From contig CAKZJF010000072.1 in assembly GCA_936941205.1 (NCBI GenBank), positions 1 to 53,006 on the forward strand: 53,006 nt of DNA, written 5' to 3'. Shown piece after piece: positions 10 through 48,168 of the stretch (its first letter is position 1; each line of letters begins with the position of its first letter). Made by a program: the position numbers and the translations under genes. The notes below the pieces were generated by a model. That model did not search any database. It was not told where the DNA came from and worked only from the letters and a program-made list of their open reading frames with translations. The stretch is from an uncultured Candidatus Altimarinota bacterium. Its GTDB lineage: Bacteria; Patescibacteriota; Gracilibacteria; BD1-5; UBA2023.

Positions 10-1131
10 CTATTTATATTTTAAATACTCATATTCAGTAATAATTTCTCAATCTTTATAATAATTATTTTTATCTTTTCAAAAAAATACATATTTGTTT
101 TCATCTGATATGAATATTACATTTAAATCTTCAAAAGTATTAATATCAGTATTTGAGATTCTTTTTTGTTTAAAATAAACATTATTTTTATCTTTTGAAT
201 ATACTTCATTAATAGGATTAAAAGTAATATAATCTATACCAGTTATTATATTACTTTCATAAAAGATGTTTATATTATCTTTAGAATAATATCATCATGG
301 TACTCAATTTGCTAAAGGTATTTTTTCAAAAAATGAAACATTAACTCCTTCTATAGCTTTATTCTGGAAATATGCATTGTTAATATCCTTAGAATATCAA
401 TAGGATAAAGTTATAAATGATTCTTTATTAACATTATTGATAACCTTATTTGCCCAATAAATATTATTTTTATCTCTTCAAAAATCAAAATTAAAAGTAC
501 TTCAATCAGGATGTGTTAATGCAACTATAGGTTCAAAACTATTATAATCAACGTTTTCTATTTTTCATTTAGCACATGAAAAAATATTAACTCAATCCTT
601 AATATAAGGCATTTTTATAACTTCAACATTCTCAATATAAACACCTTCTATTTACTTTCAGCCACAAAACAGACAATTAGTATCTTTATAAAGTGTAATT
701 TCTAGTACTTCCACTGTACTCGGATCAATATTTTTTACCACAACTCATGCTTCATAAAAATATTTTTTATCTTTTGCATAAAATAAGTCTAAAGCTTTAA
801 AGGTAGACAAATCAGCATTCTTTAATTTTTGACCATTAAAATACACATAATCTTTATCTTTTGCATAATAATTAAAATATTTTTTTAAATATAACTTATC
901 TTTTATCAAATTGCTTTCTTCAGGATATAGAACATCAAAAGAATCATAATCAGATAGAAGGAGTTGGTTATCGAAGTAAATATTATTTCCATCCTTACTA
1001 TAATTTCATCATAAATTATATTTTTTATCTATTTTATTTCCTTTTATCTCACTTAAATTAGTATTATTTTTATAATTTCAACAAGAAATTAATATAAAAG
1101 ATAAACAAAATATTAAAATAATATTTTTCAT
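10..1131 (-). pseudogene. DKNYY-type repeat lipoprotein interrupted by in-frame TAA
   Basis: The reading frame starts with a lipoprotein signal (MKNIILIFCLSFILISC; lipobox LISC) and continues with repeats of the type YAKDKxYVYFNGQ, the hallmark of the DKNYY family, whose function is unknown. After 159 codons there is a TAA at 652-654. The same frame then continues for about 213 more codons with the same repeats (SKDKNNVYFKQ, FFGKDKNNYY) to a TAG at 10-12. Because the frame and the repeat pattern are preserved, a recent nonsense mutation or a base error is likelier than two genes. UGA encodes glycine several times (SCG, NLGG, CGGK). If TAA is a real stop, the expressed product would be a 159-residue outer-surface lipoprotein from 652 to 1131. 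Confidence 0.7.
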
Positions 1132-2163: not shown

Positions 2164-2397
2164 ATGTCAAATAAATTCATACAAATTATATTTTATATTC
2201 ATTTATACTATTATTGTATTGTCAATATATCTTTTCCGATACTTTGGTACTTATTTGTATCAGCTTTCTTTTTGTGGCACAATAGTGAATATATTATTGT
2301 TTTTTTTATCGTATATGTCTTATACAATTCTTCAGAAAAAAATGAATACACGCATTTTTTTAAGCACTTTCGAGGAAGGTGGATGAGAGAGTGTTAA
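2164..2397 (+). CDS. Short hydrophobic ORF, possible N-terminus of the giant protein
   Basis: 77 codons ending in TAA, with two strongly hydrophobic stretches (around PILWYLFVSAFFLW and YIIVFFIVYVLY). It overlaps the 5-prime end of the giant gene in another frame. Losing one T from the T7 run at 2355-2361 would fuse it in frame to the giant protein and give that protein a two-helix membrane anchor. It is therefore either a small membrane protein, a frameshifted N-terminus, or a chance ORF in T-rich DNA (T-rich sequence gives hydrophobic residues in all frames). An AGAGGAG lies directly against the ATG, too close to work as a ribosome site. Confidence 0.3.
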   Translation: MSNKFIQIIFYIHLYYYCIVNISFPILWYLFVSAFFLWHNSEYIIVFFIVYVLYNSSEKNEYTHFFKHFRGRWMREC

Positions 2398-5300
2398 AGA
2401 AAAGCAAAAAGAAACTGTTTCACGAAATGAAATCCTAAAAAAATGGCCAGAACTTCAAAAATTTTCACATGAGCTGTATCGAAAATTTGAAGCGCGTGCT
2501 ACTATTTTATCTGAATTACAAGATGCACTCAATCATCCGACAAAATATTCTATTCTCTGATTAACTGATACAGAAAGAGATTCTGTTGAAGTGATTATGC
2601 AATCATTGATAAAAGTAGAAAATCCTAGTCCACAGAAACAAGTTATTGGTCGAGGAAAATTTGGGCTCTATAATCAAAAACAAGAAATGACATATTTTTT
2701 ATGACAACTTCTAAAGAATCCAGTCGTTTTAAATAATTTTTTTTCCAAATCACTTGATAGGCAACCACTCGATCCAGATAAAGAAAAAAATATTTCTCGA
2801 TTGTCTCGATTTCTTGTAGCTTTTTCAAATCACCCAGATGCAAAGAAATATACAACTCAAATACGAACATGATTACAATTTGCTGATCAATGAGACTATG
2901 AAAAACTCAAGAAATCGGTTGAATGAATTATTACAAACTATTCATCGATTTCTATAGGGGCCATTCTGAGTCCTGATGAGTCAGAAGGTCTTTGAATGGT
3001 ACTTCGTCAATTATGAGACACAAAAAATGCAGGAGATATATTTATTAAAGAATGACAGCAAACTATTCAACGAGCAGTTGAAAAAAATGTTGTTTCCCCT
3101 GAACAGAAGGCACTTGGGGAGTATTTGAATAACAATATGCGTACGGTATCAACCAATATATCAATGCCAATAGCAGAAATTCAGTATAATAAACTTGTAC
3201 AAGCACTTCCAGTAAATCATCCACAGAGAATACTTCTCGAGAATGATCCAAAGGCGAAAGAAAAGATCGCAGAAGCACATGCAGCTATATATTGTATTGA
3301 TACTTTTATTAAAGATCAATGAGACAAGGGTCTCTGAGCTGCATTTTGAAAATATAATGACATGAAGGGGTTATACGGGATAGATAATTGGAGTGATGAG
3401 AATATTAAAATGACAAAAGAGATGGCTATTATGGTTGCATCTTTTGCGTTGACAGCTGGTATTTGACCACTTCTTGGCTCACTTGGAGTTGGAGCTCGAA
3501 TCCTTCAATGAACCAATCTTGCACGAGCCACCAATCTTGCTCAAGAAGGGAAGGTTATGCGTGCAGGAATAGCAACTACAAAAGCAAAAACAGCACAATG
3601 AACTGCATGGACTCTCGAACAAGCTGCACAGATTGGACAAACAAGTACTATGGCTCGTTTCGGATCAGAGGCTTTAAAATTTACTACTCTTGATGCTTTT
3701 ATTCGAAATCGAGTACGCGCTCCAGGTGAGGTTGATTGATTTGATGAATTTATAAAGAAATTATCAACGAACTTTGTCATGTTTTGAGCTTTTGCGGGCA
3801 TGGAAAAAGTTATAGGGAAACTTTTACCGGTTTGAATTGCAAAGGCAGAATGATTCCAGATTCAAAATGGTGTAAAATTACTTGCATTTACATCATGAGA
3901 TGTTGCTGTTATGCAAGCACTTCATGCTGCAGAGACAGGAAATATTGAATGGGACTGGATGAGTGCATTCCAGGCATTAGCATTTCGTGTTGGGATGAAA
4001 GGTACTCAAAAACTTCCAGATATTATTGCAAAGCAATTTCCAAATCTTTCAACAAAATGGGAATTAGCAAAATTTGAAGCAGGAGAAATACGAAATGGAT
4101 CATTATCTCCATCCAAATGATATATAGAACCTCTACGATCTCCTGAGACTCAAATCTTTCAAGTAGAAAGTAGGAAACCAGCTCAATTAGGAAACCAGCA
4201 TTGAGTTCGTGAAACTTGATCTCAAGAAGTGGTCAATGCTTCTAAAACAATTAAAGATGTATTGAATAGAGACGTATTTAAATCAACTCTAGCTTCTCCG
4301 GATGGGCTTATACGTATACGTATTGGTGAACTGGGATTTCCTGATATTGTCGTTGTTAAGTATAAGAATACTGGCAAAAGTGATAAGCAATATACATTTG
4401 AATGAGGGAGTGATAAGAATTTCTATTCACTCTCAGAAATACGAGCTAAAATACAACAAATGCAAGAATCGGCAGGAATTCAATTTGCGACTCAAAATAT
4501 TTCAGGTCAAAAAAAGGCATATGAATCAACTCATCCTGAATCTATATTAGCAACACCAGAAATTCTTAATATAATTGATCAAGGAGTTAAGGATAATCCG
4601 CTTTTTATAAAAGCATGGTGAAGATATAAAGAATTATGATGAGAACTTTATCTCCATCCTGAATCTTGGATATCTTCCTCAGCAATTTGATGAAAATTAA
4701 ATTGGGAGAATACTTTTATAAATATTTGAATCGGTAGAGGATGAGAAGGTTTGCATATGAAAATGCAAGAGCTTTATAAAGCTTTTTGAATTGAAACCGA
4801 GTGACATATAAATACTGTATTTCGTCATGAAATCGGACATGATATTACTATTCGATACCTGCAGAATCATCCTGAAGTTAAGAATCATCTTGAGTCTAAG
4901 TATCAAGAGCTAATGGCATGAACCATATCACCAATGGCTATGGATTGATTTTATATAGGAGCATGACGAAATGTTCAGATTCTTGAAGATTTTGCTGAGA
5001 TGATGAGTTTATATATAAAGAAACCTGAAGTTTTTACTTCTTACATGCAACAATTAAAAAATGCAACAATAGATATTCCTGTAAAGAATTTTCTTAATGT
5101 TTTTGAAAATACTATTTATGGGTCTTATAGGGAATATATAAATTGAAGTAATCAATCTATAAATCCTAGTTCTAAAGCTTCAAATTCTATTATATGATCA
5201 AAATCAGAGAAATTACAATGAGTCAATTCACATACTATTTCTACCTCTCAAGAAGCTATAGATACTGCCATAAATCGTGTAAAAAGTATTCCAAAATGAA

Positions 5301-6442
5301 CTGGGGAAGAAAGAGTTGAGCTTCTAGGAAATAAATATACTATTAATCGACATACTGATGGGAATAAGCTTGATACTGTAATAGATGGTAAAGTAAGAAC
5401 TTTTGATACGGTAGAATCTTTTATTTCAGAGATTGCTCATTTGAGCAAAAAAATGGAATGAAATTGAATCACTTGAGGTATAGAAAAAAAGTCAAACCCA
5501 ATTCTTTCCAGTAAGGGCTCAATAGATTCCAGGTTGCCTGTGAATGGATTGAAATATGTAATCACGAAAGAAGTTCGGTGAGATATTGCTGATTCTATGA
5601 AACGAGGGGCGGAGTGAGATGTAAGTAAGCGTATTCAAACCGGAGATACTGCAAAAATACGGGAATATGATACCATAATCAAAGACACGGTACTGAGGGT
5701 AAAACAATTGGATTCAATCCCTGAAATCAAAAAAGCACTTGAGATGAATATAGTCTGACCACGAAAGCCTGGAACAGAAGTAGTTGATACTATTGAACGA
5801 GAAACACTCAGGTTGCGTACAGAAGAAATTATCCAATCGAAGGCACCAGAGATTGTGCGAATTTTATCGAATCCTCAGGCACTTGAGGAAGCTGTAAAAG
5901 ATCCAATAAATTGGAAAAAATGGTCTCTTGCTGGAATTATCCCCTGAGTTCTTTTACTTGCTTATCTTGCTAATAAAGATAAAGATCCATCTTCCTGACT
6001 CACTCTTCCAAATGATAGAGATACCACTTCGTCAGAAGCTGCAGCAAATTATTGTAAAAAATGTTACTCAGGTCCATCAGCAGTTTTGGATATTAAGAGA
6101 GAAATTAAAATTAATGGAAAAGTAAACATAGCTGATGAGAAGTATAGAATGTGAGTATCGAAGCGATGGATGGGATGAACACAATGGAAAAGTCTTGTTC
6201 CTGAATACCAGGCATGGCATGATTCGTTTGAAAATACTGATTTTAAAACAACAATGGATACAATTTTAACAAATAATTTTACCAGTAATGACGTACGATT
6301 ATTACAACATTGTATAGGTATGTTAGATAATGGTAAATCACTGGATTCTAAATACTCACAAGACGGCATGCTGGGGACAAATACTACAAAAGCAATTTTG
6401 GATTATATGCATACCTGTGTTGGTGAAACGAAGAAGTCATAA
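2342..6442 (+). CDS. Giant membrane-associated protein with zincin-like HEIGH motif
   Basis: About 1,366 residues, continuous only when UGA is read as glycine. Near residue 829 is HEIGHD, an HExxH zinc site, followed about 60 residues later by EDFAEMM, which could supply a third, acidic ligand as in gluzincin or lethal-factor-like peptidases. Hydrophobic segments occur near residues 365-385 and 470-490, and a clear TM helix (SLAGIIPGVLLLAYLA) near 1193-1210. The roughly 150 residues after it contain CKKC, and the C-terminus (DVRLLQHCIGMLDNG, then DGMLGTNTTKAILDYM) resembles peptidoglycan-binding-like repeats, weakly. No named family was recognised. The start is uncertain: ATG 2342 is used here, ATG 2315 is in frame, and the frame is open back to 2159. 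The next gene starts 14 nt downstream. Confidence 0.75.
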
Positions 6443-6456
6443 AAAATTATCATACT

Positions 6457-7365
6457 ATGCCCCAATTTCCCTCTTCCTACAATTCCACAGACAATCATCC
6501 GAAGATTTCTATAACATCCCCAGAGAAATCTCCTGAACTGGATCATCTTACTGAGACAGTTCAAGCAAAAATTCCGGATATTTTCAAAGCAAACATATCT
6601 TCACAAATGGGAGAACTTTTATGACGACTTCCAGCATTTGAGTCTCTCATATCAAGGAATCATCGTATATTTGGTGTAGAAATTTACCATTTTCTTACTT
6701 CTCGGTGATACGAAATAAAGACGACATCAAAAAATGAACAACAGAAGTACAGAGAAAAAGTTACAGAGTTTATAAAACGTTGAGAAAGTCTTGGTGCGCA
6801 TATTGATGCAGATGTCTTTGTAGAGACGGAGATTGTATCATGAGCTCCTCGATGAAATACAACATTTAAATACTATCAAACATTTACTGAATCTGCCTGG
6901 AATCAATATATCGATAAACTCCCTGAGCTCTATGGTATGATTGCGCGAGAATTTGGTGATAATTCAGGTGAGAGAATTAGCGCAAAATTCCCAGCCTTTC
7001 TTTCTGGATATATGGAAAAGTGCGATAATTTGGTAATATATTGTAGAAATCAAGATAACCTTCCAAGAATTCAAAAAATGGTAGAACAGTGGATTCTTCG
7101 GTATTCTCTTCCAGCAGTGAATCGACCATTTTATCGAAGTGCTTTTTGAATCGATACGGCACCCGCTCATTGACAGGACAAGACAAGTTTCTCAGATTTG
7201 TGCGCTATTTTATCCATTGAATATGCAAAAAAATATGAGTCATGGTATAAAAAACAAACCGGAAAAACTCTTACTGAAAGAGAATATAATATTTTAGTAC
7301 TTGGACAAGCATGCATGATGGCATCGAGCGAACCAAAAGAATTGAAAGCAGTTACAAAAAGATAG
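6457..7365 (+). CDS. Protein of unknown function next to the zincin gene
   Basis: 302 residues, no signal peptide or TM helix, with many UGA glycine codons. The N-terminal 30 residues are Ser/Pro-rich. The C-terminal half (NLVIYCRNQDNLPRIQKMV, then VNRPFYRSAFGIDTAPAHG and a helical end) faintly recalls the HopA1-like effector fold, in which a similar strand-rich core is followed by a P-x-x-SF segment; this is weak and could be chance. It starts 14 nt after the giant zincin gene and is probably co-transcribed, which suggests a shared role. It converges on mnmA, whose stop is 7 nt away. Confidence 0.75.
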
Positions 7366-45102: not shown

Positions 45103-45128
45103 AAAAAACACCTGAATGGTGTTTTTTT
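45103..45128. terminator. Shared terminator of convergent genes
   Basis: AAAACACC...GGTGTTTTTTT; overlaps the stop of the large minus-strand gene. Confidence 0.8.
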
Positions 45129-48100
45129 ATTGGAGTCTATAATTCGTATTCATTGGAACTCGTTCTGTGCCATATTTTTTTTGTACTTCCTTGAGTTCTA
45201 TATCATATCTTTCTTGTGTCCAGTCTTCTGTAAATCCATATCAAATTCCATTTGGAACTTCCTTAAATGTTTCCATTACCTCAAACATTAGTTTAGTAGT
45301 ATCAAATTTCTTTGATAATACCTCATAAAACATATGTGACTCATGACGAACATTTATAAGAAGTGTGTGTGCCATTTTGGTAGCATCATCTATGGAACTT
45401 TTGATTACTACAAGCTCTTCGGGATGAACATATTTGAGAAAATGAATATTTAAATCATTCATGTTTCATTCTTTGATTCTTCTTCGAAGTTCTTGCCAAT
45501 AAGTTACTGCGAGTTCTATATTTGTTCCAAATGTAATTGCCTGATAACGAAGTAAGTGAAGATATTCATTTGCTTCATCTTGTGATAAATATTCTTTTCT
45601 TTTATGAAGAAGTTCAAATCTGCAAAGAGCATATTCTTTGATTCCATCATAGAGTTTTGGATTTAATTTATCAAGTATTTCCTGATCACTTCCTCAGAGA
45701 AGTTGCACTGCCTTGAGACGTTCATTTGCATCTCAGCGAAAGTGGTACTCAATCCAGAGTTCCGTTGCTTCTTCTACTCTTCCCATTTCATCAAGTTGAA
45801 TAAGAAACGGTCTTGCTTGTATATAAATACCTCACTCTATAGCAGTACTTGCTAATAATGTAAGAATCTGTATGGAATCAGTATTTTTAAATGTTTCAGA
45901 TAATAATTGAAAAGATTCAATATATTTTCATGAATCTCTTAGAAATTGTGCATATTCATAAACAGTTCATTCAAATTCATTTTTTGTAAATTTATGTACT
46001 ATTGGGTCTGTTTGGATTTTTTCCTCTTTCAGAAATTTTGTACTGAATTCAAGGGAATCAGAAAAGTGTCTTTCCGCTTTCTCTCTATGAAATATAGCCC
46101 TTTCCTCTTTTTCAGAATCTTTTCATCTTGATAATGTTTGAAGATTACATGCCTCCATCCAATGAGCAAGCCCAAGGATTTTTAACATTCTTGGTAGTGT
46201 TATATCATCTCGGGAATGAAGACGAACTTCATTTTCTATTTCTTCAAGAAAATAGAGGAAATTGTAACTTTCTCACTGATATGAGAGCTCATCAAGATTC
46301 GCTGCAAAATTGGTATAGATTTCCATAATTCTCTCAGGATTGTGGAGTCAGAGCTTACAAATGTGTTCTAGAATATCAGGATCATCAGGGTGACATGTTT
46401 CGGTCAGCATACTTATAGCTAAATCATTCAATCCATATTCATTTGCAAATAATCATATTGCCTGGGCTTGAGTATCATCTATTCACTGTTTTTGAAGAGC
46501 TTGAATACTACTATCAATTGCAGTATCATTGATAAATAAACATCCAAGCATAAGTGAATAAATCATTAGGTCAGTATCATTTTGATGAGGTATAGCACCA
46601 TGTTGAAATTGTACAATGTATTCAATCTTTCGAAGGAACATTTCCCCATACTTTTCATATACTTTTCGTTGAAAACTCAGAAAGTTGCTACGTATTTCTA
46701 TTGGTATGTTGTTAAGCGTTCCTCTGGTATGTTTATAAGAAGCCTCCTCTGTATCTATTGCTTCAATCATTTCCTCATCATGGATTTGAAGTTGAGAAAG
46801 TATCTTTCGAATTTTTTCAAATGTTCCCGTGTGAACGTGGGAAGTACCAATGTGTTGAAGAATAAATTGAATATGATCTACAAAAACAGCAGCAAAAGTT
46901 TGAGGTTCACTTTCATATTCTTCTCCTTCTTCTTTCGCTCTTTGTTTTTCAAAAAATTCTACAAGTTTCATGACATGTGGAACTGGATGGGATTCAAAAA
47001 AATTATATAAAAATTCATATCCTCCAGGTGTTTGTGAAAATTCATCAATATAATGAAGGTATGATCCTATCATTGTAAAATCAAGATATCAAAATATTGA
47101 ACGATGTAATAAAAGAAGTTGTTCCATGCTAAGACGCATATATTCTTCTTCAAAACCGTGTTCTTTTTGAAGTTCTGAATTTTCTCATAAATATTGTAAT
47201 ATCCGAGCATTCCTTGAAAGTTCTCGTATACTGGTTGTATGTACTTGTTTTTCTAATTCTTTTCCAAGAATATGTTCACCAGGCTCTGTATGGTAGAGAG
47301 TAATCATATCATCAAGAGATGATATATCAGCAATGGATAATTCTTTTTTAAATGCGTATACTGGATCTGGATTTGGAATAATACTGCTATAGGTATTGTA
47401 TAGCTTATAGGCTTCTCTATCATCTCATGCACGAAATCTCAATGCTATAAGGCTTTCGATATAATGAATATCTTTATATTTCTCCCATCATGTTTGGAGA
47501 ATTGAAATAGCTGCTTGGATATCTTCTGCATTTTCAAGGAGTTCACAGAACGGTGCATGACACATATCATCTCATAACTGGATTCATGCTTCATAATATT
47601 CACTGGCACTTGTATAGTCTCACTCAAGTTGCATATAGAAATCTCCCGCTAGTCAAAAAAATTTCTTTTCTTGTTCATTCAGAGTATTTTTCTTTCCGTC
47701 AATAATTTTTTGTGCCTTTCAAAATAGAAAATCTACCCCATCAACTATCATATGAGAGATTTCTTCTTCCTCATCAGGAAGTGTTTGAAGAAATTCACGC
47801 GCTCATGAAAGTATCTCGGAAAAGTATCTCGGATCAAATTCCCCTGTTCGATCGAGATAATGCTTTGCAAGCAAAAATCATTTTTTTATAATACTTTTTT
47901 CTCATCCAAGAAATCATTTCTTTAATACCTCAAGAGAGAGAAGCTTTGTTATACTTGCATCATGTTCAGCGAGGATATCATTTCTATCATAAAAGTCCCT
48001 GAGTATTTTCTTTTGTGCTCGATGAGACCGATGACGAAATATTCGTGATTCTGGATTGAGCAGTGCCTCACATATTTTTTGTACGTCTGATAGTACTTTT

Positions 48101-48168
48101 ATGTTTTCGCTTATATCCGGAGGTATTGTTGATTCCGGAAGATTTGATAGAGTCCTTTCTTGTATCAT
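45127..48168 (-). CDS. 1,013-residue helical-repeat (TPR-like) protein
   Basis: Continuous frame of 1,014 codons with about 35 UGA codons; the standard code leaves only fragments. Almost wholly alpha-helical. Repeats of paired helices are visible, for example LAGDFYMQLEGDYTSASEYY followed by AAISILQTGWEKYKDIHYIE and FRAGDDREAYKLYNTYS, the A-helix/B-helix spacing of TPR or related solenoids. No signal peptide or TM helix, so probably a cytosolic scaffold. It lies downstream of a BatD-like gene; TPR proteins (BatB/BatE) accompany BatD in other bacteria, but this one is much larger. Function inferred only as protein binding. Confidence 0.75.

What the first reader, a model, noticed from the sequence alone, without database searches (positions are those of the whole stretch)
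2342..6442. Giant membrane-linked protein with HEIGHD zinc site and no recognised family
A 1,366-residue protein carries a zincin motif with a downstream EDFAE, internal hydrophobic segments, a late TM helix and a Cys-containing C-terminal domain. With its 14-nt-spaced neighbour it could be a surface protease or a contact-dependent effector of a host-attached cell.
Basis: partly seen in the sequence, partly recalled or inferred. Interest (0 to 1): 0.65.

Follow-up and report, generated by a model that had tools for sequence, protein, structure and literature searches.

The report
Envelope-anchored giant protein with zincin module
A tiny recoded bacterium (Gracilibacteria) makes a giant, apparently cell-wall-anchored protein built like a toolkit, in which one probably interchangeable part looks like a zinc protease; that part is shared with a second, unrelated-looking giant protein, but whether it acts on the host or inside the cell is not known.

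Summary
In detail: window 2342-6442(+) is one 1,366-residue ORF, but only under code 25 (TGA=Gly, 50 sites). It has HEIGH at residues 829-833, EDFAE at 882-886, a late TM (1193-1211) and a four-Cys C-terminal domain; the next gene starts 14 nt later. No Pfam, NCBIfam, PHROG or PDB match is significant. The protein is modular. Its N-domain (28-590), a small middle module (587-713) and its C-module (1141-1359: TM, paired Cys, peptidoglycan-binding-like repeat) each recur in other giant proteins of the same family, none of which holds HExxH. The zincin module (about 775-902) instead recurs at the C-terminus of a different 1,471-aa giant in another family of the order (z=13.9), with HExGH and EDxAE conserved. 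It is also linked, through those two motifs only, to a zincin family with N-terminal hydrophobic segments found across the class. Best reading: an inserted gluzincin protease module in an envelope-anchored giant. 'Surface protease' is not established: simple topology puts the zincin on the cytoplasmic side of the anchor. 'Contact-dependent effector' is possible but unproven (no signal peptide, no conserved immunity neighbour). Structure predictions were too weak to test the fold.

The parts
2342..6442 (+). giant modular protein P0001, 1,366 aa, genetic code 25 (50 TGA read as Gly)
   Evidence: single copy in own genome
2423..4111 (+). N-domain (residues 28-590), mainly helical, shared with giant proteins of four other genomes of the family and, more weakly, with a 544-aa protein of a non-recoded class member
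   Evidence: BLAST E down to 6e-117; alignment A1; low-confidence model almost all helix
3422..3478 (+). conserved hydrophobic segment, residues 361-379, KD 1.79 (1.8-2.1 in siblings)
3776..3832 (+). second, weaker hydrophobic segment, residues 479-497 (KD 1.24)
4100..4480 (+). small middle module (residues 587-713; core about 640-713), shared with two other giants
4664..5047 (+). zincin module (residues about 775-902), shared with the C-terminus of a 1,471-aa giant in G288
   Evidence: score 107 against shuffled mean 33, z 13.9; hhalign P 1.4e-9; blastp 2.8e-5
4826..4840 (+). HEIGH (residues 829-833), inferred zinc ligands H829 and H833 and catalytic E830
4985..4999 (+). EDFAE (residues 882-886), inferred third zinc ligand E882, 49 residues after H833
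5762..6418 (+). C-module (residues 1141-1359): TM anchor plus outer domain, shared with two other giants
5918..5974 (+). TM helix, residues 1193-1211
6053..6418 (+). four-Cys outer domain (C1238, C1241, C1324, C1359); C1241 and C1324 are absent together in the G003 homologue, so probable disulfides are 1238-1359 and 1241-1324
6362..6394 (+). peptidoglycan-binding-like repeat DGMLGTNTTKA (residues 1341-1351)
   Evidence: hhalign of the C-domain to sibling repeats Prob 93.6, P 2e-7; column shuffles at most 0.5; Pfam itself gives no match
6457..7365 (+). co-directional neighbour P0002, 302 aa, no family; weak relatives in one other genus and none beside a giant gene there

Best explanation
P0001 is an envelope-anchored giant protein of a recoded Gracilibacterium. 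It is made of a long helical N-domain with membrane-seeking segments, small linker modules, a gluzincin-type zinc protease module, a TM helix and an outer, probably disulfide-bearing, peptidoglycan-binding-like domain. The protease module was probably inserted into a chassis that relatives carry without it. Expected working: H829, H833 and E882 hold one zinc ion, E830 activates water, and a peptide bond of a protein held near the envelope is cut while the C-domain tethers the molecule to the wall. Shown here: the modules and their separate recurrence, conservation of the two motifs in a homologous module, and the TM with paired Cys beyond it. Inferred: zinc binding, proteolysis, wall binding and N-in/C-out topology. 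The substrate is unknown; the most likely uses are processing of the cell's own envelope or attachment proteins, or attack on host proteins.
For: Modules match separate sets of giants. The zincin module is homologous to the C-terminus of a 1,471-aa giant in another family (z 13.9; P 1.4e-9; z 4.1 with both motifs masked). HExGH and EDxAE are invariant across the 7-row alignment and, as HExxH and EDFxE, in 27 of 27 zincins of the class-wide family, though part of those rows were picked by the motifs. Weak matches to TIGR04549 (0.0037) and Peptidase_Mx1 (0.042) fall on the same residues. The C-domain matches sibling peptidoglycan-binding-like repeats, one of which reaches Pfam PG_binding_3 at 1.2e-5.
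Against: The AlphaFold model of the zincin module has mean pLDDT 43 and cannot confirm the fold. The link to the class-wide zincin family vanishes when the two motifs are masked, and a profile of that family alone scores P0001 hardly above the best shuffle (0.02 against 0.031). The residue after HEIGH is Asp (HEIGHD), where the usual zincin pattern has an uncharged residue (from memory). No sibling with the same N-domain holds HExxH. Topology is inferred from hydrophobicity and Cys only.
Confidence: 0.58

Rival explanations
1. A contact-dependent effector with an interchangeable payload: the N-domain and its hydrophobic segments carry enzymatic modules (a zincin here; a zincin and a glycosyltransferase-like domain in the G288 giant) across the membrane of an attached host cell.
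For: A shared N-domain with differing middles; conserved Gly/Ala-rich hydrophobic segment; the zincin sits in two different giants; the G288 giant also has a stretch with GT2-like motifs, seen by eye, on which weak glycosyltransferase matches fall (best 0.0045); Gracilibacteria are predicted symbionts (PMC6851277), and giant membrane proteins are proposed for host contact in Vampirococcus (PMC8080830).
Against: No signal peptide or export signal found; no conserved immunity-like neighbour; the C-terminal wall anchor does not fit a released effector; no Pfam toxin domain in any sibling; the zincin lies inside the protein, not at an end.
Confidence: 0.17
2. A housekeeping or regulatory membrane protease: the zincin faces the cell's own cytoplasm and cuts a bound regulator or envelope protein when the outer domain senses the wall.
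For: N-in/C-out topology is the simplest reading: no signal peptide, paired weaker inner segments, and disulfide-type Cys only beyond the last TM. Signalling proteins with an outer wall- or sugar-binding domain and an inner working domain are known (RsgI type; from memory).
Against: The related class-wide family has N-terminal hydrophobic segments suggesting export, pointing to outside substrates; patchy occurrence (6 of 27 genomes of the family match any part) does not suit housekeeping.
Confidence: 0.15
3. The zincin module is a degenerate or non-enzymatic remnant and the protein is a structural surface or wall scaffold.
For: Siblings do without the module; Asp follows HEIGH; giant membrane proteins held to form the fibrous surface are described in Vampirococcus (PMC8080830).
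Against: All inferred ligands and the catalytic Glu are kept, also in the distant G288 homologue.
Confidence: 0.1

Closest known systems
TIGR04549 LP_HExxH_w_tonB, Pfam Peptidase_Mx1 (PF15890) and Peptidase_Mx (PF15887), gluzincin-type putative zinc peptidases
   Same: HExGH with a downstream ExxAE motif about 50 residues on; weak TIGR04549 and Mx1 matches on exactly these residues
   Different: Scores are far below the curated cut-offs (16.5 of 75 bits; 13.6 of 25.6 bits); those models are 236-261 positions long, while here the module sits inside a 1,366-aa anchored giant
Class-wide zincin family of Gracilibacteria (example: own genome, L055:8279-8980)
   Same: HELGH and EDFAE at nearly the same spacing; profile-profile P about 1e-7
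   Different: Mostly about 230-310 aa with an N-terminal hydrophobic segment; similarity is carried by the two motifs only
C-terminal module of the 1,471-aa giant in G288 (L056:8006-12421, minus strand)
   Same: Homologous over about 130-145 residues with both motifs
   Different: Different N-terminal part, no peptidoglycan-binding-like end, a glycosyltransferase-like stretch before the zincin
Peptidoglycan-binding domains PG_binding_1 and PG_binding_3
   Same: DGxxGxxTxxA repeat in the C-domain; profile match to sibling repeats
   Different: No direct Pfam match in P0001; extra paired Cys
Giant membrane proteins of Vampirococcus lugosii (PMC8080830)
   Same: Very large membrane proteins in a related predatory lineage, proposed for host contact
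   Different: Those carry WD40, PKD and adhesion domains; no zincin module is described in the passages read

Membership tests
Gluzincin metallopeptidase (clan MA(E)) | HExxH motif conserved in homologues | tested here: met
   HEIGH in P0001, HELGH in the G288 homologue
Gluzincin metallopeptidase (clan MA(E)) | third ligand Glu in a downstream helix motif | tested here: met
   EDFAE at +49, EDLAE in the G288 homologue; invariant in A4; sequence level only
Gluzincin metallopeptidase (clan MA(E)) | zincin fold with the three ligands meeting | tested here: inconclusive
   single-sequence AlphaFold, mean pLDDT 43; both motifs fall in predicted helices but without confidence
Gluzincin metallopeptidase (clan MA(E)) | zinc binding and proteolysis | not testable with these tools
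   needs purified protein
Peptidase_Mx1 / TIGR04549 | score above the curated cut-off | tested here: not met
   13.6 against 25.6 bits; 16.5 against 75 bits
Peptidoglycan-binding domain family | Pfam gathering score | tested here: not met
   no match for residues 1141-1366
Peptidoglycan-binding domain family | DGxxGxxTxxA repeat in a homologous domain | tested here: met
   DGMLGTNTTKA; hhalign Prob 93.6 with clean shuffles
Polymorphic or contact-dependent toxin | conserved carrier with differing effector parts | tested here: inconclusive
   shared N-domain, differing middles, but only one middle has a recognisable enzyme
Polymorphic or contact-dependent toxin | adjacent immunity gene | tested here: not met
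   the neighbour's relatives are not beside giants; the G019 giant is followed by a short ORF on the other strand instead
Polymorphic or contact-dependent toxin | export signal or secretion-linked domain | tested here: not met
   no N-terminal hydrophobic segment from ATG 2342 and no Pfam domain

The most novel reading that the evidence does not exclude
Gracilibacteria hold a family of membrane- and wall-anchored giant proteins that act as carriers with exchangeable enzyme modules (zincin, glycosyltransferase-like) and pass them into, or expose them to, an attached host cell.
Probability: 0.17. Interest if true: 0.8.

Novelty: new variant of a known kind. Interest (0 to 1): 0.42.

Why it matters
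How host-dependent Gracilibacteria act on their hosts is largely unknown, and many of their giant proteins match no family. A modular giant with a probable protease module shared between otherwise different giants gives a concrete, testable candidate and a way to look for further modules of the same kind.

Tried and rejected
Phage or plasmid origin: no match to P0001 or its zincin part nor in viral contigs. Direct family assignment: nothing significant. Simple membership in the class-wide zincin family: rejected as too strong, since the signal is lost on masking the motifs and a profile without P0001 scores it near the best shuffle. Operon partner as immunity gene: not conserved. Fold test: both AlphaFold jobs gave low confidence, so no fold search was run. 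A last search for further copies of the zincin module in 31 chosen genomes was empty, but without a positive control. Literature searches for HExxH proteins or metalloprotease effectors in this group found nothing in the held library.

Full report
Observation. The stretch 2342-6442(+) is interrupted by 50 TGA codons in table 11 and is open as 1,366 aa when TGA is read as glycine, code 25. The nearest named relatives are Candidatus Gracilibacteria genomes, a lineage for which UGA=Gly has been shown by proteomics (cited in PMC6851277). The motif pair is rare by chance (0.14% of shuffles). There is no significant match in Pfam, NCBIfam, PHROGs or PDB sequences.

Modular anatomy. Searching the family and class found partial relatives only. 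BLAST among the recovered giants splits P0001 into parts: an N-domain (28-590) shared with giants of G019, G003, G015 and, over a shorter stretch, G005; a small module (587-713) shared with G019 and G009; and a C-module (1141-1359) shared with G003 and G009. The G019 giant seems to follow the same plan without a zincin: N-domain, middle module, a weaker hydrophobic stretch and a peptidoglycan-binding-like repeat. None of these relatives contains HExxH. G003 and G015 are incomplete, so absence there is not proven.

The zincin module. A fragment search of the class gave weak hits, several of them lying on HExxH and EDxAE. One is the C-terminus of a 1,471-aa protein in G288, a genome of another family in the order. 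The two align over about 130-145 residues: score 107 against shuffled mean 33, sd 5.3; blastp 2.8e-5; hhalign P 1.4e-9. With both motifs masked the same alignment still scores z 4.1. HExGH and EDxAE are kept in both. Other hits belong to a family of zincins with N-terminal hydrophobic segments. A profile made from seven sequences, P0001 and G288 included, found matches in 290 of 341 class genomes, and three places in the window's own genome: P0001 itself and two others. That family matches TIGR04549 (4e-8), Peptidase_Mx (4.8e-6) and ATLF (4.7e-5), the Pfam ones just under their cut-offs and TIGR04549 far under its own. Its link to P0001 is real by profile comparison (P about 1e-7 to 1e-8; shuffles at most Prob 0.7) but rests on the two motifs. 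I therefore call the module gluzincin-like, not a member of that family.

Anchor and topology. The C-module has a TM, then a domain with four Cys and a DGMLGTNTTKA repeat. In the three-way alignment two Cys columns are in all members and the other two are lost together in G003, a pattern expected of two disulfides and so of a location outside the cytoplasm (inference from three sequences). The repeat matches sibling repeats by profile. With no signal peptide, the simplest topology is N in, C out, which leaves the zincin on the inner side unless the hydrophobic segments in the N-domain cross the membrane an odd number of times and the C-domain lies inside. This is the main unsolved point and decides between a surface protease, an inner processing enzyme and a delivered effector.

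Context. Upstream on the other strand lie three tRNA genes and two DKNYY-family ORFs. Downstream, P0002 starts after 14 nt; its weak relatives in another genus are not beside giants. Nothing in phage, plasmid or viral collections matches.

Structure. AlphaFold on the zincin module alone gave mean pLDDT 43, and on the N-domain with four sequences 45.5. Both motifs lie in predicted helices, but at this confidence that is no test. Loci from whole-genome searches are not among the inputs the structure tool lists, so the G288 homologue was not used there.

Verdict. The new element is the chassis and module arrangement in an unnamed giant family, with the same zincin module in a second giant that also carries a glycosyltransferase-like stretch.

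Noticed in passing
L055:8279-8980(-) (own genome contig C79); relatives at L025, L027, L029, L058:4840-5649: A stand-alone zincin with an N-terminal hydrophobic segment and HELGH...EDFAE; a profile built mostly from this family matches 290 of 341 genomes of the class. Below Pfam cut-offs for Peptidase_Mx, Mx1 and ATLF, so probably unnamed.
   Followed up: partly
L091:1217-1609(+) (own genome contig C11): A third short zincin-like ORF, HEIGHYFYF...YEDFAENF, 130 aa, among small ORFs.
   Followed up: no
L056:8006-12421(-): 1,471-aa giant with GT2-like motifs (by eye; weak NCBIfam glycosyltransferase matches) followed by the zincin module; residues 68-1037 match a giant in G009 (L017:7000-10513) in two blocks at 44-46% identity.
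   Followed up: partly
L016:668-9610(-): Tandem array of three giant proteins with a small lipoprotein-like ORF between two of them in G009; the first shares the four-Cys C-domain with P0001.
   Followed up: no
L018:599-5602(-): 1,667-aa giant with three peptidoglycan-binding-like repeats.
   Followed up: partly
window 45127-48168(-): 1,013-aa ORF with only weak TPR-like matches.
   Followed up: no
window 10-1131(-): Two adjacent DKNYY-family ORFs, one with a lipoprotein-like N-terminus.
   Followed up: no
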